NCBI GenBank assembly: GCA_017858255.1
Contig: JAFMBV010000006.1
Coordinates: 1-64,000, forward strand
Source: Bacteriovoracaceae bacterium
GTDB lineage: Bacteria; Bdellovibrionota; Bacteriovoracia; Bacteriovoracales; Bacteriovoracaceae
Length of the DNA stretch: 64,000 nucleotides
Reading direction: 5' to 3'
Shown here: in pieces, positions 7,528-31,613 of the stretch
Layout of the letters: every line of letters starts with the position of its first letter
Position numbering within the stretch: position 1 is the first letter of the stretch
Position numbers and translations under genes: made by a program
Notes under the pieces: generated by a model
Seen by the model: the letters and a program-made list of their open reading frames with translations, nothing else
The model's database searches: none
What the model was told of the DNA's origin: nothing

Positions 7528-8763
7528 GTGAATCTTTCCCTGCGTGGACGAGTCACATGGAGTTTTATTATCGCCAACCTTGTTGTGTTGTCGCTGACCT
7601 TTATTGTCTTTCATTATCTAAATAACCTTAATAAAGATATTGAATCCATTACCGTCAAATCTAACAGAGTAGCCCTTTTAACTGATGAAATCAGGATTTC
7701 AGCAGTTTCTCTTTTAAAGTATCAAAGAAGAATTTTAACAAATAAACCAACTCCACAGCAGGTCGATAAGATTATCAATCTTTGTGAAGGTTTTACGTCT
7801 CAACTGCATACTCTTGATTCTCTTTACAAGAATCCTGATGCAAAGAAAGTTGTGGGCCAAATGCTCTCCTACGTCGATTCTTTAAAACTGGTTTTGAGTA
7901 AAGGTGCCCTCTTCAATAGGGGAGGCATGGGCATGACCACTATTGGGGAACTCTCTGATAAGATTCTTGACTCCTTTTCTGAGTTCCAAGATATCCAATA
8001 TTTTGAAACAGTAGAGAGAGATAAGAAGATTAAAAAGATTATCAGTGAAACTAAAAGACACATGATGATTGTTCTTATTATTGGTTTCCTCTTCACAATC
8101 ATTCTTGCGCTGGTTATCCCTGGGAAAATCGCCCTTCCTTTTAAAAAGATTAAAGACGCTATTCGAGAACTCCAAGATTGTAACTTTGACGTCAGTATCT
8201 ATTATTCACAAGACGATGAAATCGGTGAGATTGCTCGTGAGATGAATAAAATGATTCACTCCTTTAAAGTTTTTGAGGAGTTGCGTGCGGATAGAATTTC
8301 TGTTGAGAACAGAAAATTTGATGCACTTGCTAACCTCGTTAGAAGACCTGTGCTCGTGGCAAATGCTAATGGCGCCCTTATTTACCTCAATAATCAATCT
8401 TACTCATTGCTTCAGGTTCAATCAGAGGATGTCATCGGAAAAGAGATGGCAGAAACGGTTGTGCCGATGTCAATTATCGATACTTTTGAACTTGCTCTAA
8501 AGCGGCGCTCAAAAATTGAGAATAATGAAATAAAAATTCATGCTAAGCATCAAGAAGAAGACGAGAAGCCTGATGCCAAAGAGAGTGAAAAGGAAATAAA
8601 TTTAGTCGAAGGCGAAGTTATAGAAGCCCCTACTGGGGAAGAAGAAGAAGAGAAAGAACCTGAATATATTTATGTGGGTTATGCCAATGTTATCCCTATT
8701 CGTGGAAAAGAAAGTTCCCTAGATTATTACCTTATGGTACTGTCCAAAGAAGTATTTACCTAA
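7528..8763 (+). CDS. Membrane sensor-like protein: periplasmic helices, HAMP, PAS, no output domain
   Basis: A GTG start preceded by AGGAG. Transmembrane helix 1 is at about 10-30, followed by a long helical extracytoplasmic region (about 31-180), helix 2 at about 182-203 ([19 protein letters not shown]), a HAMP domain (about 205-255) and a PAS-like domain (about 265-410). The PAS is interrupted by a highly acidic stretch around residues 340-378. There is no HisKA/HATPase, GGDEF, EAL or methyl-accepting tail, so it lacks a recognisable output. It lies 8 bases after trkA, so it is probably co-transcribed and may sense a condition linked to ion uptake; that role is inference. It could also be a receptor for a separate partner. 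Confidence 0.7.
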
Positions 8764-8824
8764 AAATTGTTGCGTTGTGACAGGTGCGAACTGTTATATT
8801 GGCGCCGTCTTTTTGGATCATCGA

Positions 8825-10117
8825 ATGGATCAAAAGTTTATTAGAAACTTTTCTATTATTGCTCATATTGATCATGGCAAGTCGACCTTGGCCGATCGCC
8901 TGCTTGAGGCCACCGGTACGGTAACTAATCGTGAAAAGAAAGATCGTCTTCTCGATAATATGGATCTTGAAAAAGAGCGCGGCATTACCATTAAGGCGCA
9001 GACTGTTCGTCTGAAATATAAGGCCAAAGATGGTAACGATTACTATTTCAATTTAATTGATACTCCAGGGCATGTGGATTTTACCTATGAGGTAAGTCGC
9101 TCCTTGGCCTCTTGTGATGGAGCACTTCTTGTTGTCGATGCTTCTCAGGGTGTAGAGGCCCAGACCTTGGCCAATGTTTATATGGCCATGGAAAATGACC
9201 TTGAGATCATTCCCGTCATTAATAAAATAGATCTTCCTCACGCTGATGCCGAAAAGGTTAAAGCAGAAATTGAAGACATTATTGGCATTGAGGCCATGGA
9301 AGCCGATATGGTTTCTGCAAAGTCTGGTATCGGCATTGAAGGCCTTCTCGAAACCATTGTGGCCAAAGTTCCAGCGCCTGGGGGTAATCGTGAAGAGGAT
9401 CTCCAAGCTCTTATTTTTGATTCATGGTTTGACCCTTATAGGGGCGTTGTTGTGCTCGTTAGGATTATTAACGGGCGAATCAAAAAACGTGAAAAAATAC
9501 ATTTAAAAAGATCTGGTGGAGAGTACGAAGTTTTAAATATGGGTGTTAATGCTCCCTTTTATACAGAACTAGATGTGCTTTCAGCAGGCGATGTAGGCAT
9601 GCTTATTTGTGGTATCAAAACCATTCGTGACGTGAAGATTGGCGATACTGTTGTTTTGGCCAATAAGAAAAATACACCTGCTCTTCCTGGTTATACTGAA
9701 ATAAAGCCAATGGTTTTTTGCGGTATTTTTCCTGTTGAATCGAATGAATATGAAGATCTTAAAGACGCTCTTGAAAAATTAGCTCTTAACGATTCTTCAT
9801 TCACCTATGATCCTGAAACATCGGCTGCTCTTGGTTTTGGTTTTCGTTGTGGATTTTTAGGTCTGCTTCATATGAATATTATTCAAGAAAGGTTAGAGCG
9901 TGAATTTGACCTCTCTCTTATTTCGACAGCACCTTCTGTGAGTTACGAAGTTCGTCTACTCAATGGTGATACTAAGCTTATTTCAAATCCTTCAGAAATG
10001 CCTGAAGTCGGTGATTTTGAAACAATCGAAGAACCTGTCGTTTCCCTTTCTATACACCTTCCTAATGAGTTCGTAGGAAGCTTTGTGAAGAAAGACGTGG
10101 GCGTCAAACAAATATGA
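8825..10117 (+). pseudogene. lepA: lepA (EF4) N-terminal fragment, frameshifted
   Basis: Elongation factor 4, a ribosome-binding translational GTPase. This part carries the G domain (IDHGKST P-loop, switch region [17 protein letters not shown]), domain II and most of domain III ([16 protein letters not shown]). The start at 8825 ([18 protein letters not shown]) matches the family better than the GTG at 8777. The frame runs normally to LPNEFVG, then drifts into non-family sequence and stops at 10117. From 10078 the family sequence continues in another frame ([16 protein letters not shown]), so about 3-4 residues are missing and the frame is lost: the gene is broken by a small deletion or a sequencing error. 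The next fragment overlaps by ATGA. Confidence 0.85.
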
Positions 10118-10614
10118 AATACCTAACGGAAGATCGTGTTCAATTATTTTACGACCTGCCTTTAAGTGAAATGGTTTTTGATTTCTATGATAAATTAAAG
10201 TCCATGAGTAAAGGCTATGCCTCTATGGATTACGAGTTTAAGGGCTACGAACAAGCTGATCTCGTAAAAGTAGATGTTCTCCTAAATGGAGATAAAGTCG
10301 ATGCTCTCTCTCTTATTTGTCACAGAAGTAATGCTTTCTTTAAGGGAAGACACTTAACTCAAAAATTACAAAAGCTCATCGATCGCCAGCAATTTGATAT
10401 TGCCATTCAAGCGGCCATTGGAGCCAAAATTGTTGCGAGAGAGACTATAAAAGCTCTTCGTAAAAACGTTCTTGCCAAGTGTTATGGTGGAGATATTTCA
10501 CGTAAGAGAAAGCTGCTTGAAAAGCAAAAAGCAGGTAAGAAACGTATGAAAATGGTAGGAGCTGTTGAGGTCCCTCAAGAAGCATTCTTGGCCGTCCTAA
10601 AGGTGGATGATTAA
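10114..10614 (+). pseudogene. lepA: lepA (EF4) C-terminal fragment
   Basis: This holds the rest of EF4: the domain IV/V part ([23 protein letters not shown]...) and the EF4-specific C-terminal domain ([45 protein letters not shown]). Family-like sequence in this frame begins upstream of the ATG, at 10078, which shows it was originally one gene with the preceding fragment. The ATG at 10114 overlaps the upstream stop as ATGA, so reinitiation could in principle make the two halves separately. Whether either product is functional is unknown. Confidence 0.85.
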
Positions 10615-11265
10615 ATGCACGAGAGCTTGCGCCACCTTTTAGAGAAGGTGCTTACCCAATATTCTCGAGATGAATTCTACGATACTCTTTTAAAGGCCAA
10701 AGAGGATTACTTTCTAAAGACTGGTAAGGCCTTTGAAGAAGACGAGGATTATGAATCGCGCATGGCCTCTTTTAATGATTGGTATGTTCTTCAGTACCTT
10801 CCAGACACTTCGGGATTAACATTCTTTGAGCAATATACTGTTGGCCATGAGGTTTTAGCTGACCTTAAAGAATCAATTGAAATAACCAATCATAGTTTAT
10901 TTGAATATACCGGTACTTCTTTTCGAGGACAGCATCTTCTTAAAGATATTCTTCACGATGAAAAAATAACGTTGTCCAAAGTCCACTCTACTCCTTCAAT
11001 GGTAAAGGGAGATTTATTTATTGGACGAACAACTTTCTACCGTGAAGAAAATTACCTTTATAATGGTTTAAGAATCATGCCAAAAGAGGCGCGCTCACCG
11101 ATGAAAAAGGAAGCGAAGAAGGTAAGAAAATTAAATGATAGAAAGCAGGAACTCGACTTTCTCTTCTTTACCGAGGCCCTAAAAACCAAGTGGCAACGCT
11201 ATGGGCATGTGGATGTGAATAAAATCTTTGTTTTTCCAGAAAATCGAATCAACTCAACTCTTTAA
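10615..11265 (+). CDS. Hypothetical protein, 216 aa
   Basis: I do not recognise this protein. It has no signal peptide or membrane segment, is rich in charged residues and begins with a helical, acidic region (DEFYDTLLKAKEDYF, FEEDEDYESRM), with a basic stretch near 160-180 (MKKEAKKVRKLNDRKQ). Its ATG follows the lepA stop codon with no gap, so it is probably translated with lepA and was kept in frame independently of the lepA lesion. Ends 4 bases before a convergent gene. Confidence 0.6.
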   Translation: MHESLRHLLEKVLTQYSRDEFYDTLLKAKEDYFLKTGKAFEEDEDYESRMASFNDWYVLQYLPDTSGLTFFEQYTVGHEVLADLKESIEITNHSLFEYTGTSFRGQHLLKDILHDEKITLSKVHSTPSMVKGDLFIGRTTFYREENYLYNGLRIMPKEARSPMKKEAKKVRKLNDRKQELDFLFFTEALKTKWQRYGHVDVNKIFVFPENRINSTL

Positions 11266-24295: not shown

Positions 24296-26959
24296 ATGAC
24301 GAAATGGGTGTACAGCTTTAGCGCTGAAAATACTGAAGGAAATAGGGAAATGAAACCCTTGCTAGGTGGCAAGGGTGCTAATCTGGCTGAGATGAGCTCA
24401 TTGGGCCTACCAGTTCCTCCTGGTTTTACGGTTACTACCGAAGCTTGCTTGGATTACGATAAAAGTGGTCAAAAAATAAATGATGAAATCAGCTCTCAAG
24501 TGAGAGAGGCCTTAGAGCAAGTTGAGAAAGTAACGGGAAAGTCATTTGGTGATGATGAAAATCCTCTTCTCTTTTCTGTTCGCTCAGGGGCCCGTGCTTC
24601 CATGCCCGGAATGATGGACACCGTTTTAAACCTGGGCATGAATGATAATTCAGTGCAGGGCCTGGCAAAACAGACGGGAAATCCTCGCTTTGCATGGGAC
24701 AGCTACCGTCGCTTTATTCAAATGTACGCCAATGTCGTAATGGGCTTCAATGTTTCCATGCTTGAGGCAACACTTGAGGATTTGAAAGAAGCAAGAGGCG
24801 TAAAAGAAGATACCGAGCTTACGTCAGAAGATTGGCAAGAGCTTATCGTTGTTTATAAGAAAATCATCTTAGAAGAGACGGGCAAGACCTTTCCAACAAG
24901 TCCTATGGATCAGCTTTGGCAAGCAGTTGCCGCCGTATTTGGTTCTTGGAATAATCCACGGGCCATAAAGTACCGTGAAATAAATGACATTCCTCATGAG
25001 TGGGGAACGGCAGTTAACGTGCAGTCTATGGTCTTTGGAAATATGGGCGAAGAATCAGGCACAGGTGTTTGTTTCACGCGTGACCCAAGTACCGGTAAAA
25101 AAGTATTCTTTGGGGAATACCTCATGAATGCTCAGGGTGAGGATGTTGTGGCGGGGATTAGAACGCCCGCACCTATTAATGAATATTCAAAAAATGAATC
25201 CAATAAAAAGCTAAAGACCTTAGAGGAAGTGCAATCATCTTCCTATAATACTCTTGTTGATATTTATCAAAAGCTTGAAGCGCACTATAAAGACATGCAA
25301 GATATCGAGTTTACTATTGAAAATGCGAAGCTTTATATCCTTCAAACAAGAAATGGAAAAAGGACAGCTGCAGCGGCAATTACTATTGCTGCGGACTTAG
25401 TGACAGAGGGAATCCTCAGTAAGAAAGAGGCCATCTTAAGAATTAATCCTGAAGATCTAAATCAGCTACTTCATCCGCGCTTAGACCCGAATGCCAAAAC
25501 TCAATTATTAGCTTCTGGCCTGCCCGCTTCTCCTGGAGCAGCGTCTGGCACGATATGTTTTTCCTCTGAGGCAGCATCCTTGAAGGCTGAAAATGGCATT
25601 AAAGTTTTGTTGGTTAGGCAAGAGACTTCTCCCGAAGATATTTCGGGTATGGTTGCGGCTCAAGGAATTTTAACAGCGAGAGGTGGAATGACTTCTCATG
25701 CTGCTGTTGTTGCAAGAGGGATGGGCAAGCCTTGTGTGGCCGGCTGTTCTGACATGACCATTAACTATGCTGAACAAACAGTAAAAATTGGTAGTGAAAC
25801 ATTTAAAGAAGGTGACCCTCTAACCATAGATGGGGCCACTGGTGAAATAATGAAAGGTATTGTCCCTACAATCTCTGCCAAAATTAGTGAGGAGTTTGCT
25901 TCTTTTATGAGATGGGCGGATGAATTTAGAACATTAGGTGTGCGAACGAATGCTGATAACCCCGAGGATACAGAGGTCGCTCTAAAATTTGGTGCAGAGG
26001 GGATTGGTCTATGTCGAACGGAGCATATGTTCTTTGCGCCTGAGAGAATTTTAGCTGTGAGAGAAATGATTTTCTCTCAAACACTCGAGGAAAGAGAGAA
26101 GGCCTTAACGAAAATTCTTCCTTTTCAGAAATCTGATTTTGAGGCGATCTTTAGGAAAATGAAAGGCAAGCCGGTAAATATTCGTCTTTTAGATCCTCCT
26201 CTTCATGAATTTCTTCCTCATCATAAAGATGAAAAGCTTGAATTGGCTGAATATTTAAAGATAAGTCTTGAAGAAGTTGAAGCTCGTGCTGAAAAGCTTC
26301 ATGAATTTAATCCTATGTTGGGACATCGTGGTTGTCGTTTAGCTGTTACTTATCCTGAAATTTATAAAATGCAAGTAAGAGCAATAGCCGAAGCCGCTGT
26401 TGTTGTTGTTGTTGAAGAAGGCATTGATGTATTGCCTGAAATTATGATTCCTTTAGTTGGTCTCTCTGGAGAGTTGAAATTTCTAAGAGGGGAAGTCGAA
26501 GAAGTTTTAAAAGCTGTCTGGAAAGAAAAAGGAAAAGAAGTTAATACAAAAATTGGAACTATGATTGAGCTGCCACGCGCAGCCATTACGGCCGCAGAGA
26601 TAGCCAAGCATGCTGATTTTTTCTCTTTTGGAACCAATGATCTTACTCAAACAACTTATGGTCTATCTCGTGATGACTCTGGGAAGTTTTTACCGGAATA
26701 TCAGAGACGTGAGCTAATGCGCCACGATCCTTTCGTTGCCTTGGACCAAGAAGGTGTAGGCTTCTTAGTAACTCATGCTGTTAGAGAGGGAAGAAAAACT
26801 AACTCATCTATGCATATGGGTATTTGTGGTGAGCATGGTGGAGAACCAAGTTCAATAGACTTTTGTCATCGTGCAGGTTTGGATTATGTTAGTTGTTCAC
26901 CTTTTAGAGTACCGATTGCTCGTTTAGCAGCGGCTCAATCTGCCCTTAAGAACAGTTGA
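24296..26959 (+). CDS. ppdK: Pyruvate, phosphate dikinase
   Basis: Interconverts pyruvate, ATP and phosphate with phosphoenolpyruvate, AMP and diphosphate. The N-terminal ATP-grasp domain (GGKGANLAEM, then VRSGARASMPGMMDTVLN) precedes the swivelling phosphohistidine domain (GGMTSHAAVVARGMGKPC, the active His in TSHAA) and the C-terminal PEP/pyruvate barrel (GFCRTEH-like GLCRTEHMFF, LPEIMIPLVG, SFGTNDLTQTTYG, CGEHGG). Length 887 is normal. Allows gluconeogenic or reversible PEP supply. Its stop overlaps the next start as TTGA. Confidence 0.95.
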   Translation: MTKWVYSFSAENTEGNREMKPLLGGKGANLAEMSSLGLPVPPGFTVTTEACLDYDKSGQKINDEISSQVREALEQVEKVTGKSFGDDENPLLFSVRSGARASMPGMMDTVLNLGMNDNSVQGLAKQTGNPRFAWDSYRRFIQMYANVVMGFNVSMLEATLEDLKEARGVKEDTELTSEDWQELIVVYKKIILEETGKTFPTSPMDQLWQAVAAVFGSWNNPRAIKYREINDIPHEWGTAVNVQSMVFGNMGEESGTGVCFTRDPSTGKKVFFGEYLMNAQGEDVVAGIRTPAPINEYSKNESNKKLKTLEEVQSSSYNTLVDIYQKLEAHYKDMQDIEFTIENAKLYILQTRNGKRTAAAAITIAADLVTEGILSKKEAILRINPEDLNQLLHPRLDPNAKTQLLASGLPASPGAASGTICFSSEAASLKAENGIKVLLVRQETSPEDISGMVAAQGILTARGGMTSHAAVVARGMGKPCVAGCSDMTINYAEQTVKIGSETFKEGDPLTIDGATGEIMKGIVPTISAKISEEFASFMRWADEFRTLGVRTNADNPEDTEVALKFGAEGIGLCRTEHMFFAPERILAVREMIFSQTLEEREKALTKILPFQKSDFEAIFRKMKGKPVNIRLLDPPLHEFLPHHKDEKLELAEYLKISLEEVEARAEKLHEFNPMLGHRGCRLAVTYPEIYKMQVRAIAEAAVVVVVEEGIDVLPEIMIPLVGLSGELKFLRGEVEEVLKAVWKEKGKEVNTKIGTMIELPRAAITAAEIAKHADFFSFGTNDLTQTTYGLSRDDSGKFLPEYQRRELMRHDPFVALDQEGVGFLVTHAVREGRKTNSSMHMGICGEHGGEPSSIDFCHRAGLDYVSCSPFRVPIARLAAAQSALKNS

Positions 26960-27858
26960 AAGACAGAGCACGGAAAATCATATTAGCGAGTTGGCCTGCT
27001 CAAGATTTTGATCATTTGGGCCTATGTTTTTTTAATCTGAAGTCGGGAGAGAAGGATTTTCTTGAGTTTCATCAAGGTGTTGAGAAATCTCTTGAAAATT
27101 TTTATTTTGATCTTGCTAGTATTACCAAAGCAATGACTATGGGGGCTTTGGCCACCATGAACCCGAGCTTATTTGAAGGCGATAAACGCCTTTTACTAGA
27201 GCATAGGGGAGGTCTTCCTCGTTGGGCAATACTTGGTAAGAAGTCTTGGCAGGAAACTGTTCTTAAATTTCCCATTAAAGATTCTTCAACGGAATATTCT
27301 GATTTATCTATGTTGCGCCTGATGCTTATGATTGAAGAGCAAGAGGGAAAAAATCTTAAAGACTTGGTAAGTGGTTATTGGCATAAGGAGCTTTGCTTTT
27401 GGAAAGACATGCCAGCACATGCTATTTGCCCAGATACAGGTTTTAGGCAGAGGGAAGTTATCAACGGTGAAGTCAATGACGATAACTGTTTTAAGATAAA
27501 TCGCTTTTGTTCCCATGCAGGCCTTTTTGGAACCCTTACTGGAACTATTGAAAGTCTCTTTAATTTGGAAAATCAATACGGCCTCTTGAAACACATGAGT
27601 CGATCTTTTAAAGAGTCGAGGGTAGAGCGTTACCTCTATGGTTGGGACACTGTTGAAGACCCTAACGTTTCTTTAGCAGGAGTTGGTTGCCCTTCTCATA
27701 CCTTTGGTCACTTGGGCTTTACTGGCACAAGTGTTTGGATCGATGCAGATTCAGGAAAGGGCTGGTGTTTACTCACAAATTCTACCAAGAAATACTGGTA
27801 CCATCGCCAAGAGCTGACTAAGCTAAGACAGTCCCTTGGTGCCCTTCTTTGGCAGTAA
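26956..27858 (+). CDS. Beta-lactamase-fold serine hydrolase-like protein
   Basis: A cytoplasm-predicted 300-residue member of the class C beta-lactamase/PBP fold. Evidence is the SxxK motif SITK inside FDLASITKAMT (residues 55-60), a Tyr motif YSD at about 115, and the HxGFTGT motif HLGFTGTSVWID near the end. No signal peptide is seen, and the fold appears shortened versus AmpC (about 360). The TTG start overlaps the ppdK stop. It could be an esterase or peptidase-like hydrolase; the substrate is unknown. Confidence 0.7.
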   Translation: MKDRARKIILASWPAQDFDHLGLCFFNLKSGEKDFLEFHQGVEKSLENFYFDLASITKAMTMGALATMNPSLFEGDKRLLLEHRGGLPRWAILGKKSWQETVLKFPIKDSSTEYSDLSMLRLMLMIEEQEGKNLKDLVSGYWHKELCFWKDMPAHAICPDTGFRQREVINGEVNDDNCFKINRFCSHAGLFGTLTGTIESLFNLENQYGLLKHMSRSFKESRVERYLYGWDTVEDPNVSLAGVGCPSHTFGHLGFTGTSVWIDADSGKGWCLLTNSTKKYWYHRQELTKLRQSLGALLWQ

Positions 27859-27925
27859 TTATAGCTGCTTAGATGTTATTCTCAAGTCTTTTACTCAAGT
27901 ACCGATAAGCTCTTATTAAAGAACT

Positions 27926-27931
27926 TATAAT
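27926..27931 (+). promoter_or_regulatory. Putative -10 box of the Fic lipoprotein gene
   Basis: A perfect TATAAT ten bases before the ATG at 27941, preceded by TTAAAGAACT. The short distance would give an almost leaderless transcript. No clear -35. Confidence 0.4.
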
Positions 27932-27940
27932 AGGTATTTT

Positions 27941-30082
27941 ATGAGAAATACGCTTATTCGATTGGTTATAGCGGCGCTTTTATTTCAAGCTTGTAGTTCC
28001 ACTGGATTAAGTGGAAGACGTGGGCCTGCCGCTGAAAACTTTACCTGCAAAGAATTAATCACAGAAGTTCTTCAAATTAAATTTATCCTCACAAGAAAGC
28101 GTTTTCTAAAAGCGTTAAAAAAAGAATATCCGAGTGCAAAGTCTAAGATTGTTGAGAAGAATTTAGATGCTCTTCTTTTTATCGATTATTCACACGCCTT
28201 TAATGTCTTAAATGACATTCATCTTGGCGATGGGCGACTTTTTTCGGAGTCAATTTTCGATCTTTATTCAAATACAGGTGGCGGACGGGCCTTTCAAAAT
28301 TATATGAAGGCGACTAAGTATCTCTTTGAAAATAAACCAGTAATTAATATCAACACTCTTAAGGAAGTTCACAAGAGAATGATGAGTGGTGCTATTGATG
28401 GAATTCCTGCAGAGAGAATTGGTGTTTTCAGAAAAGAAGATATTATTGGAAATGTTCCCACGGGTTATGAAATTAATGAAAAGCAATATCAAGCTTTAGT
28501 AGATAACCCTTATATCAACGCCACCGAATTATTCGCAGGTAATAAGGGTTATACAGGTCAAATTGGCTACCCTAATGCGACTAAGAATACTCCTGAAATA
28601 ATGGAAATGGTAAAAAGGAGCAATAGGGACCTCCATGATGATCTTGTTAAGTTTCAGGCCGGCCAGGGCGGCGACTTTGGGGATTTGACGGGAAGGCTCA
28701 TCAATCAACTGACAGAAGATCTGCTCGATTGGTTTGTTAAACAAAGAGATCAGATCGGCACGATAAAGTCTGTTGCTGGATTTAAAAAGTTTGCCAAGCT
28801 AGTCGCAGAATTTCAACGAAGCATGGTTTCTATCCATCCTTTCTATGATGGTAATGGGCGCTCGATTAGACAATTCTCACTTTATTACCCTTTTTGGTTA
28901 GAGGGGTTACCACCTCCACGAATGGTGGACGTCAATAACGATATTTATAACTCTCTCGATGAATGGACAGACCAGATAACTCAAGGGGTTTATAGCTCCC
29001 ACGCACTCTACACACAATTAACAAAGAGGCTAGAGCAAGGTCTTCGTCTTGGTGCTACCCCAGAACTTCTTTATCCAAAAACTCCACGTAAATATGGCCG
29101 TACTTTTCGTAGTCAAAAACCAAAGAAGACAATAGCGAATCATAAACTCGTTGATGTTAAAACAGGCCAATTTGCTGAGTTTGTAAATACTAAGCTTCTT
29201 AATGATGATGAGCTTATGGCCCAGTTTGAATCGAACCCTAATGATGTTTTGGATGGATTGATTAAAAAGTATATTGAATTCGCTCAAAACTCGAATATGC
29301 ACTACAGACACGCTAAGTTTGGGGATGAAATTATTGGCCTTGAACTTGTCGACCAGGATTTTATTGAAACTTTTGGCAATCGCAGTTTTTTAGATCCAGA
29401 GAAATGGAATTATAAAATGAAGCGTTGGTATAAAGATCAAACCTTATGGAGAGGACTCTCACGCACGGAAGAAGTTGAAGAGAGTGAAATCGTTTCGATG
29501 TTTGAGTCTCTTCACTATCAATTTGTATCAAATAGAACGATGGGTTTTACGGACAATTCAGAACGTCTACAAGACGAGCTTCTACTTGATTGGGCCAATT
29601 ATAATAATAATCTTGTTAATGGTGGGCTAGTGCGTATGGCAAAAGATCATTCTGAATCAGGGGAACTCTATCCTGTAAGTTATGGTTATTCGCTCTCTGA
29701 AAAGTGGGAAGTCGGCCGGGCCTTCGCTATGGGGGCCATGGTTGTTGCTCCCTACGGCAAACACTGGGATTATCAACATCTTCTTAAATCAAGAGTTGTC
29801 GTGGGATTGAAGCAGGCCAACAAAGATGTGGAGTTATCCCGATTAAAACAGTTGAGACCGGAGTTTTCTTATAAATACCCGCGCCAAAAAGAAGTTATGG
29901 GAATTGGTGCTGCTGACCCTGATTCAGTAATGTTTGTTCAGTTAATTGATGCTGAAGGAGATGCATTTCTTACCTATGCTAGAAACCCTAAGAAGCCGAG
30001 TGAAATATTGGTTTTTGAAGGTGACGTACGTGATGAGAAGAAGCTTCCTCGCAGTCCTTTAAGAAAAATCAACTTACGCTAG
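27941..30082 (+). CDS. Lipoprotein with a Fic domain and a possible ADP-ribosyltransferase domain
   Basis: A 713-residue exported lipoprotein: signal peptide ending in the lipobox LFQAC (C18). Residues about 270-330 hold a complete Fic motif HPFYDGNGRSIR (H299 to R310), the core that transfers AMP or other nucleotides or phosphates to target side chains; it includes the catalytic histidine, the metal-binding acid and the phosphate-binding GNGR. The C-terminal third has spaced blocks resembling the R-S-E signature of ADP-ribosyltransferases: LWRGL (R504), YSLSEKWEVGRAFA (S584, S586) and YPRQKEVMG (Q649, E651). Fic is clear; ART is a pattern match only. No chaperone or antitoxin gene is adjacent. 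Its place in the envelope is unusual for a Fic enzyme and points to targets in the periplasm or outside the cell. Confidence 0.75.
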   Translation: MRNTLIRLVIAALLFQACSSTGLSGRRGPAAENFTCKELITEVLQIKFILTRKRFLKALKKEYPSAKSKIVEKNLDALLFIDYSHAFNVLNDIHLGDGRLFSESIFDLYSNTGGGRAFQNYMKATKYLFENKPVININTLKEVHKRMMSGAIDGIPAERIGVFRKEDIIGNVPTGYEINEKQYQALVDNPYINATELFAGNKGYTGQIGYPNATKNTPEIMEMVKRSNRDLHDDLVKFQAGQGGDFGDLTGRLINQLTEDLLDWFVKQRDQIGTIKSVAGFKKFAKLVAEFQRSMVSIHPFYDGNGRSIRQFSLYYPFWLEGLPPPRMVDVNNDIYNSLDEWTDQITQGVYSSHALYTQLTKRLEQGLRLGATPELLYPKTPRKYGRTFRSQKPKKTIANHKLVDVKTGQFAEFVNTKLLNDDELMAQFESNPNDVLDGLIKKYIEFAQNSNMHYRHAKFGDEIIGLELVDQDFIETFGNRSFLDPEKWNYKMKRWYKDQTLWRGLSRTEEVEESEIVSMFESLHYQFVSNRTMGFTDNSERLQDELLLDWANYNNNLVNGGLVRMAKDHSESGELYPVSYGYSLSEKWEVGRAFAMGAMVVAPYGKHWDYQHLLKSRVVVGLKQANKDVELSRLKQLRPEFSYKYPRQKEVMGIGAADPDSVMFVQLIDAEGDAFLTYARNPKKPSEILVFEGDVRDEKKLPRSPLRKINLR

Positions 30083-30143
30083 AAAATATCTCCAAAGAAT
30101 TACTTTTCCGGCTTGGACCCTTGGTGGCCTGGTATTAGAATGG

Positions 30144-31613
30144 GTGTTGAATCTCACTAATAAAGGCCCGTACGTGAACTTAAATAATAAACTCGACCTA
30201 AATAGTCTCTTAAACAAAAAAGAGAGCATTAAGAAAATATTCTTCTATAGAATCTGTGGCACCGGAATGGGGGCCGCAGCTTGTTTACTCAGAGAGAAGG
30301 GTTATGAAGTTGAAGGCGGAGACCTAAACTTCTTTCCTCCTATGTCTGATTACTTAAAAAATACTGGAATTCCTCTTCATGATCTCGAGAACTTTGATTG
30401 GAAGTCATTGGATAGTTTTGATTTAGTTGTGGTGGGTAATGTTGTTCCTCGAAACGGCGAAGATGCTCGTAAAATTGAAGAGTCTGGAATTCCTTTCTGT
30501 TCATTTCCCGCAGTCTTAGGAGCCTTTGTTCTTCACGACTTTAATGTCGTTGGTGTGGCGGGAACTCACGGTAAAACAACCACAACCTACTTTCTTTCTC
30601 AGATGTTTGAAAAGATGGGCCAAAACCCAGGTTACCTCATTGGCGGAGTCTTAGAAGGTCAGCCTTCTTCCAAACTTGGAAATGGTCGTTACTTCTTTAT
30701 TGAAAGCGATGAATACGACTCAGCCTACTTTGAAAAGATATCAAAGTTTAGAAGCTACTCTTTAAATCATATGATTTTAACTTCCTTAGAATTTGATCAT
30801 GCAGATATATTTGATGATATCGAAGACATAAAGAAGGAATTTGAACCAGTGATTCAAAACCTAAAGGGCCATATCATCGCCAATATCGACTATAGTGGAG
30901 TGGAAGATATAAAAGTTAAATATCCTGAAAGAAATTGGCATCCTTATGGGGAGCATTCCGATAGAGGACCTCGTACCCTAAACAAAAGTTCCGATAAAAC
31001 TCTCTTTGAAATAAACCTTGCTGGCAATTGGGAGCGCTTTGAAACCAATGTTGTTGGTGAGCATAATATTTTAAATCTGAGTACTTGTATAATTTTCGCT
31101 CATGCTGAAAACCTTTCTCTAGAAGAGATTAGGGCCTCAATCACAGACCTCAAGTTTGTGAAGCGTCGTCAAGAAATTCGTGGAACTTATAAAGGCGCCC
31201 TCGTGATTGATGACTTCGCTCACCACCCTAGAAGTGTCGCTTGTACAATTGAGACTATTAAAACCCAGTATCCTAATAAAGAAATTGTGGTTGTATTAGA
31301 ACCTAACTCTGCGACTGCTCGGAGTAATATCTTTCAAGAAGAGTTTGCAAACTCATTGCTGCAAGCGAATCATGTCATTTTCGCCAAACCAGAAAGGGCC
31401 ACGTCAGTAAAGAGTGCCCAAAACCTAGATTTTGACCTTTTACAGCAGGAATTAAAAGGGGTGAGTATCCCGAGTGATATTGCTGTTGATCTTGAAGTCT
31501 TAAGGGAGCTAATCGATAAGCTGGTAAGTGAAAATAGTCTTTTACTTATTTTGAGTAATGGAACGTGCTTGGGTCTCTGGAAATCTGAGTTTGTTCAAAA
31601 GTTAGAGCGCTAA
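30144..31613 (+). CDS. mpl: Murein tripeptide ligase Mpl
   Basis: Mur-ligase-fold enzyme that re-attaches recycled L-Ala-gamma-D-Glu-meso-DAP to UDP-MurNAc. Evidence: CGTGMGAAACLL in the N-terminal domain, the ATP loop GVAGTHGKTTTTYF, the Mpl-type block FFIESDEYDSAYFEKISKF, LEFDHADIF, and VIDDFAHHPRSV in domain 3. The start is uncertain: the GTG at 30144 gives about 25 extra residues before the conserved part, and TTG or GTG codons at 30147 and 30174 also exist. Overlaps the next gene as TAATG. Indicates recycling of peptidoglycan fragments. Confidence 0.88.
   Translation: MLNLTNKGPYVNLNNKLDLNSLLNKKESIKKIFFYRICGTGMGAAACLLREKGYEVEGGDLNFFPPMSDYLKNTGIPLHDLENFDWKSLDSFDLVVVGNVVPRNGEDARKIEESGIPFCSFPAVLGAFVLHDFNVVGVAGTHGKTTTTYFLSQMFEKMGQNPGYLIGGVLEGQPSSKLGNGRYFFIESDEYDSAYFEKISKFRSYSLNHMILTSLEFDHADIFDDIEDIKKEFEPVIQNLKGHIIANIDYSGVEDIKVKYPERNWHPYGEHSDRGPRTLNKSSDKTLFEINLAGNWERFETNVVGEHNILNLSTCIIFAHAENLSLEEIRASITDLKFVKRRQEIRGTYKGALVIDDFAHHPRSVACTIETIKTQYPNKEIVVVLEPNSATARSNIFQEEFANSLLQANHVIFAKPERATSVKSAQNLDFDLLQQELKGVSIPSDIAVDLEVLRELIDKLVSENSLLLILSNGTCLGLWKSEFVQKLER

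What the first reader, a model, noticed from the sequence alone, without database searches (positions are those of the whole stretch)
27941..30082. Lipoprotein carrying a Fic domain and a possible ADP-ribosyltransferase domain
Seen directly: lipobox at C18, full Fic motif HPFYDGNGR (299-307), and C-terminal blocks LWRGL (R504), YSLSEKWEVGRAFA (S584/S586) and PRQKEVMG (Q649/E651) in the R, S-x-S, Q/E-x-E order of ADP-ribosyltransferases. Known: Fic enzymes transfer AMP and related groups; ART toxins use that R-S-E set, and Q-x-E is common in Asn/Gln-modifying members. Two nucleotide-dependent modification domains on one outer-envelope lipoprotein would be an unusual effector or self-modification system, of interest in a predatory lineage.
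Basis: partly seen in the sequence, partly recalled or inferred. Interest (0 to 1): 0.75.

Follow-up and report, generated by a model that had tools for sequence, protein, structure and literature searches.

The report
Exported two-enzyme Fic–ADP-ribosyltransferase protein
A marine relative of predatory bacteria, together with Bdellovibrio-like genomes and their kin, encodes an exported protein that joins two protein-modifying enzymes, a Fic transferase and a previously unannotated cholera-toxin-like ADP-ribosyltransferase, which looks like a secreted weapon or tool aimed at other cells.

Summary
Window 27941-30082 (+) encodes one uninterrupted 713-aa protein with a PROSITE-type lipobox (C18), a canonical Fic motif (HPFYDGNGRSIR, 299-310) and the ordered R504 / S584-x-S586 / Q649-x-E651 set at the stated positions. 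The motif order alone is weak (3% of shuffles show it). Homologs and structure make it strong. The C-terminal domain has no Pfam or PDB sequence match, yet R504, S584 and E651 are three of 11 invariant columns in a 21-sequence alignment, and 55 of 57 homologs across the phylum keep all three. AlphaFold2 (pLDDT 91) gives an ART fold with each residue on the expected strand. All 50 PDB fold matches listed are ART toxins. The Fic half matches AnkX and FICD folds and lacks a conserved autoinhibitory motif. ART residues survive in four homologs whose Fic motif has decayed; the reverse was never seen. Most homologs have Sec-type N-termini, but only 12 of 53 have a lipobox, so lipidation is a lineage trait. 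Paralogs reach 2233 aa. The gene sits in an interchangeable-cargo spot between a beta-lactamase-like gene and an mpl-like Mur ligase gene. Best reading: an exported bifunctional effector acting on another cell. Target and delivery are untested.

The parts
27941..30082 (+). Complete ORF of the Fic-ART protein (713 aa plus stop)
   Evidence: full-length homolog L032, 81% identical
27941..27991 (+). Sec/lipoprotein signal peptide, residues 1-17
   Evidence: hydrophobic stretch 5-15, Arg near N-terminus, PROSITE-type lipobox
27992..27994 (+). Lipobox cysteine C18, followed by Ser (not Asp) at +2, consistent with outer-membrane sorting by the E. coli rule
   Evidence: sequence; pattern test; the sorting rule is from general knowledge
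28289..29038 (+). Fic domain, approximately residues 117-366 (mostly helical, with conserved G161/R164)
   Evidence: Pfam Fic; AF2 model; Foldseek AnkX 4.3e-6 and FICD 4.4e-4
28835..28870 (+). Fic catalytic motif HPFYDGNGRSIR, residues 299-310
29126..30079 (+). C-terminal region with ADP-ribosyltransferase fold, residues 396-713; core beta strands 497-693
   Evidence: AF2 pLDDT 90.8; Foldseek to ART toxins; hmm match 396-713
29450..29452 (+). R504, ART catalytic Arg on the first core strand (497-508), in LWRG
   Evidence: invariant in A1/A2; strand assignment
29690..29698 (+). S584-L585-S586, ART S-x-S motif (STS in most homologs) on strand 582-586
   Evidence: S584 invariant, S586 nearly invariant
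29885..29893 (+). Q649-K650-E651, ART Q-x-E motif at the start of strand 651-655 (E-x-E in some distant members)
   Evidence: E651 invariant in A1/A2, E in 55 of 57; Q in 51 of 57
26956..27858 (+). Context, upstream gene: beta-lactamase-like protein (left border of the cargo spot)
   Evidence: Pfam Beta-lactamase 2.5e-7; neighbour in relatives
30144..31613 (+). Context, downstream gene: Mur ligase, probably mpl (right border of the cargo spot)
   Evidence: Pfam Mur_ligase domains; matched in all 59 genomes searched

Best explanation
It is an exported, probably outer-membrane-anchored, bifunctional effector. The N-terminal Fic domain would transfer a nucleotide-derived group (most likely AMP from ATP, possibly phosphocholine as in AnkX) to a protein hydroxyl. 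The C-terminal R-S-E ADP-ribosyltransferase with Q-x-E would transfer ADP-ribose from NAD+ to a non-arginine acceptor (Asn, Gln or a nucleobase are the precedents). Both cofactors are cytoplasmic, so the enzyme is expected to act inside, or after leakage of, another cell: prey during predation, or a competitor or protist. Export would keep an unregulated Fic/ART pair away from the producer's own cytoplasm. Shown by sequence and structure prediction: both folds, intact catalytic residues, export signals, conservation. Inferred: enzymatic activity, donors, target, delivery into another cell, predatory role.
For: ART fold with R504/S584/E651 on the expected strands; fold matches only to ART toxins, including interbacterial Rhs ART toxins, TMt 0.70-0.73. 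Triad near-invariant down to about 20% identity across the phylum. Fic fold and canonical motif, matching AnkX and FICD. No conserved [S/T]xxxE[G/N] inhibitory motif, as in constitutively active Fic effectors. Sec-type N-termini across most of the family, 12 of 53 with a lipobox. No recognisable antitoxin, immunity or ADP-ribosylglycohydrolase gene beside it in the neighbourhoods examined. Present in genomes whose chromosome lengths match B. bacteriovorus HD100 and Tiberius and a Halobacteriovorax (identification by length from memory). Published review: Bdellovibrio lacks T3SS/T4SS/T6SS and has a very large Sec-dependent secretome (PMC7174725).
Against: No biochemical data. Patchy presence (55 of 369 Bdellovibrionota genomes) means it is not a universal predation gene. 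No delivery route into another cell's cytoplasm is identified for it. D303, expected to coordinate Mg2+, is Asn in most homologs (32 of 57), although Asp here. Fic decays in four homologs, so the Fic half may matter less than the pairing suggests.
Confidence: 0.55

Rival explanations
1. The ART is the working enzyme and the Fic domain is secondary: a scaffold, a targeting module, or a regulator that modifies the ART or its target.
For: Four homologs have lost the Fic catalytic residues but keep R-S-E (L046, L048, L100, L106), and none shows the reverse. D303 is commonly replaced by Asn.
Against: 50 of 57 members keep both catalytic sets, including the window protein, Bdellovibrio-like proteins and the giant paralogs. 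H, N and R of the Fic motif are well conserved outside the decayed lineages.
Confidence: 0.25
2. It modifies proteins of the producer's own envelope (self-modification or envelope regulation), using nucleotides that reach the periplasm or surface.
For: Predicted outer-membrane lipoprotein in this clade; beta-lactamase-like and Mur ligase neighbours hint at an envelope locus.
Against: NAD+ and ATP are not normally available outside the cytoplasm (general knowledge). The neighbours mark an interchangeable-cargo spot, not a fixed partnership: the gap is under 300 nt in 18 of 32 genomes and holds unrelated genes in nine. Most homologs are not lipoproteins and many lie elsewhere.
Confidence: 0.1
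3. The C-terminal domain is an ART-fold protein that does not ADP-ribosylate targets (an NAD+ glycohydrolase that drains NAD+, or a binding domain).
For: No sequence match to any characterised ART; TM-scores to cholera toxin A1 are moderate, about 0.5 by target length.
Against: The catalytic R-S-E and Q/E-x-E set is retained in 55 of 57 and lies in the most conserved part of the domain, including the upstream Q/E position typical of transferases.
Confidence: 0.1

Closest known systems
R-S-E (cholera-toxin-like) ADP-ribosyltransferases, e.g. cholera toxin A1, pertussis S1, Scabin, Rhs toxins TreX/TreTu
   Same: Predicted fold; Arg on first strand, S-x-S strand, [QE]-x-E before the late strand; Q-x-E as in several non-arginine enzymes
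   Different: No detectable sequence similarity to PDB chains or Pfam models for the window domain (one homolog, L018, gives only Scabin-like E=0.021). Fused to a Fic domain and a Sec signal; no B subunit, Rhs cage or immunity gene seen
AnkX (Legionella Fic phosphocholine transferase) and FICD/HYPE (Fic AMPylase)
   Same: Best fold matches of the N-terminal half; canonical HPFxDGNGRxxR; weak phmmer match to AnkX, E=0.008
   Different: No ankyrin or TPR repeats detected, no conserved inhibitory motif, exported with a signal peptide, and followed by an ART; far below the NCBIfam AnkX cut-off
Polymorphic toxins with Tox-ART-RSE or Tox-Doc domains (PMC3482391)
   Same: The same two enzyme classes are listed there as separate toxin domains
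   Different: Here both sit in one conserved protein with a fixed C-terminus, no variable toxin tip and no recognisable immunity gene

Membership tests
Fic/Doc (PF02661) | HxFx[D/E]GNGRxxR catalytic loop | tested here: met
   HPFYDGNGRSIR 299-310; Pfam E=1.9e-7, 32.2 bits against a cut-off of 24
Fic/Doc (PF02661) | Fic helical fold | tested here: met
   Foldseek AnkX 4.3e-6, FICD 4.4e-4
Fic/Doc (PF02661), class II/III subtypes only | Autoinhibitory [S/T]xxxE[G/N] motif | tested here: not met
   Absent from the window protein and not at a conserved column in homologs; not a requirement of the family as a whole, since effector Fics often lack it
Fic/Doc (PF02661) | Nucleotidyl or related transfer activity | not testable with these tools
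   needs an enzyme assay
R-S-E ADP-ribosyltransferase | ART alpha/beta fold | tested here: met
   AF2 pLDDT 90.8; top-50 PDB fold matches all ARTs or ART toxins, best E=6.4e-4
R-S-E ADP-ribosyltransferase | Conserved Arg, S-x-S, [Q/E]-x-E on the expected strands | tested here: met
   R504 in strand 497-508, S584 in strand 582-586, E651 at start of strand 651-655; conserved in 55 of 57
R-S-E ADP-ribosyltransferase | The three residues line one pocket in three dimensions | tested here: inconclusive
   Model coordinates could not be measured; inferred from strand positions and fold matches
R-S-E ADP-ribosyltransferase | NAD+-dependent transferase activity | not testable with these tools
   needs an enzyme assay
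A described ART family (Pfam, NCBIfam or PDB sequence) | Sequence-profile match | tested here: not met
   No match for this domain; points to an undescribed ART family
Outer-membrane lipoprotein | Signal peptide with lipobox Cys | tested here: met
   PROSITE-type pattern met at C18; met in only 12 of 53 complete homologs
AnkX-type phosphocholine transferase | AnkX-family score (NCBIfam cut-off) | tested here: not met
   Best homolog 26 bits against a cut-off of 1400; donor not testable here
Polymorphic toxin / toxin-immunity system | Adjacent immunity or antitoxin gene | tested here: not met
   Window neighbours are beta-lactamase-like and Mur ligase genes; no recognised candidate in six other loci viewed

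The most novel reading that the evidence does not exclude
A family of exported dual-modification enzymes spread across a phylum of predatory bacteria: a Fic transferase and a new clade of ADP-ribosyltransferase in one polypeptide, delivered without a T3, T4 or T6 secretion system, that covalently modifies targets in prey. It would be a new type of prey-modifying enzyme for Bdellovibrio-like organisms.
Probability: 0.3. Interest if true: 0.85.

Novelty: new variant of a known kind. Interest (0 to 1): 0.62.

Why it matters
How predatory bacteria gain access to prey cytoplasmic contents is an open question named in a recent review (PMC10225642). It also adds an ART clade that current Pfam, NCBIfam and PDB sequence searches do not detect. 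In the literature library available here, no paper was found describing a Fic-ART fusion or any Bdellovibrio ART or Fic effector.

Tried and rejected
Motif order as evidence by itself: rejected, 3% of shuffles reproduce it. Sequence-profile search of the C-terminal domain against PDB and Pfam: nothing significant. Search for relatives in viral contigs, plasmids and phages: none; the viral fold library gave only weak matches, the best of them Fic-like, and no Fic-ART fusion. Mobile-element origin: no support. Conserved operon partner idea: rejected, because the beta-lactamase-like/mpl junction usually has no gene between and sometimes has unrelated genes. Fic autoinhibition motif: not conserved. 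N-terminal extensions of the giant paralogs: no confident domain. Distribution outside Bdellovibrionota was barely tested: one genome-contig scan with a single sequence found only L032.

Full report
Observation. The window encodes a single uninterrupted 713-aa protein at 27941-30082, + strand. Pfam recognises only the Fic domain (E=1.9e-7); residues 334-713 have no Pfam match.

Homologs. The own genome holds a paralog inside a 2231-aa protein (L033). A search of 98 relatives found matches in 25, and a profile of the C-terminal domain found it in 55 of 369 Bdellovibrionota genomes in several families. The record L032 is a Bacteriovoracaceae MAG, which places the window organism. In a 20-sequence alignment of the module the invariant columns include N305 of the Fic loop and R504, S584 and E651. 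In a 21-sequence alignment of the C-terminal domain 11 of 319 columns are invariant, among them R504, S584 and E651 (about 3e-5 for three named columns by a simple hypergeometric that ignores unequal column constraint). Over 57 members, 50 keep both catalytic sets and 55 keep R, S and E. Five have ART without the Fic residues, but L018 is cut by a contig end, leaving L046, L048, L100 and L106. None has Fic without ART, and two diverged members (L107, L109) have neither. Distant members replace Q649 by Glu (E-x-E), which in known ARTs goes with arginine specificity (general knowledge).

Structure. AlphaFold2 on the family alignment gave pLDDT 88 for the full protein and 91 for the C-terminal domain alone. 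R504 lies in strand 497-508, S584-S586 in strand 582-586 and E651 opens strand 651-655, the canonical R-S-E layout. Foldseek against PDB with the C-terminal model listed only ARTs and ART toxins in its top 50: cholera toxin A1 (E=6.4e-4), Xenorhabdus Rhs toxins TreTu and TreX (TMt 0.70-0.73), pertussis S1, PltA and Scabin among them. E-values are modest and TM-scores to the larger toxins are about 0.5, so this is a distant ART. The full model matched AnkX (4.3e-6) and FICD (4.4e-4) for the Fic half, and again cholera toxin A1 and TreTu/TreX with alignment lengths that fit the C-terminal domain.

Export and regulation. C18 satisfies a PROSITE-type lipoprotein pattern, with Ser at +2. Twelve of 53 homologs with complete N-termini have a lipobox; most others show a hydrophobic Sec-type N-terminus (a pattern and hydropathy test, not a trained predictor). 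No [S/T]xxxE[G/N] inhibitory motif occurs in the window protein, and none is conserved in the family. D303 is Asp here but Asn in 32 of 57.

Genomic setting. Upstream are glyS, ppdK and a beta-lactamase-like gene; downstream an mpl-like Mur ligase, a 567-aa protein and metK (the glyS, ppdK and metK names are read from the sequences). This order surrounds the Fic-ART gene in L032, L035, L037, L038, L086, L087 and, with extra genes, the Fic-decayed L046. Comparing the two bordering genes across 32 genomes of the family in which both lie on one contig: 18 have a gap under 300 nt, five carry a Fic-ART-family gene, and nine carry other genes, including a family of about 1270-aa predicted lipoproteins with no Pfam domain. 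The junction is therefore a recurrent cargo spot, not an operon with a functional partner. Other homologs, including the Bdellovibrio-like ones and the giant paralogs, lie elsewhere. A tree groups the giant proteins together with a few shorter ones (100/98 support).

Interpretation. Two cytoplasmic-cofactor enzymes in an exported, apparently unregulated protein of a lineage that includes predators are best explained as an effector acting in another cell. Bdellovibrio is described as lacking T3SS, T4SS and T6SS and as having an exceptionally large Sec secretome (PMC7174725), which fits Sec export. Target, donor of the Fic reaction and route of delivery are unknown. The ART-only survivors suggest the ART is the indispensable half. 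Whether the window organism itself is a predator was not tested.

Literature. Library searches found no paper on a Fic-ART fusion or on Bdellovibrio Fic or ART effectors. The polymorphic-toxin survey lists Tox-ART-RSE and Tox-Doc as separate toxin domains (PMC3482391). The polyvalent-protein paper discusses ARTs but contains no mention of Fic (PMC5512222). The library lacks most subscription papers, so absence there is weak evidence.

Verdict. The biological role is inferred. It is a new variant of known kinds: an undescribed ART clade in a new combination.

Noticed in passing
27858-30144 and the same junction in relatives (L120-L130): The beta-lactamase-like/mpl junction is a recurrent cargo spot in Bacteriovoracaceae: gap under 300 nt in 18 of 32 genomes, a Fic-ART-family gene in five, other genes in nine.
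   Followed up: partly
L120:383-4186, L124:2101-5934, L125:357-4184, L121:3503-5974: A family of large (824-1278 aa) predicted exported proteins, mostly lipoproteins, with no confident Pfam domain occupies the same spot in other genomes, 37-44% identical to each other.
   Followed up: partly
L033:4149-10841 (own genome) and L036, L039, L041, L042, L045: Giant 1450-2233-aa paralogs carry the Fic-ART module at the C-terminus behind a long N-terminal region with no confident domain.
   Followed up: partly
L093:6144-8609 and 8609-10921: One Bdellovibrio-like genome has two abutting tandem copies of the Fic-ART gene.
   Followed up: no
L052:6533-10186: A distant Fic protein with ART-like motifs (YRG, SYS, EKE) is fused to a C-terminal WD40 propeller.
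   Followed up: no
L123:430-1206, L128:271-1011, L129:237-992: At the same cargo spot, three genomes carry homologous exported proteins; L123's matches the catalytic domain of phosphatidate phosphatase APP1 (E=3e-21).
   Followed up: no
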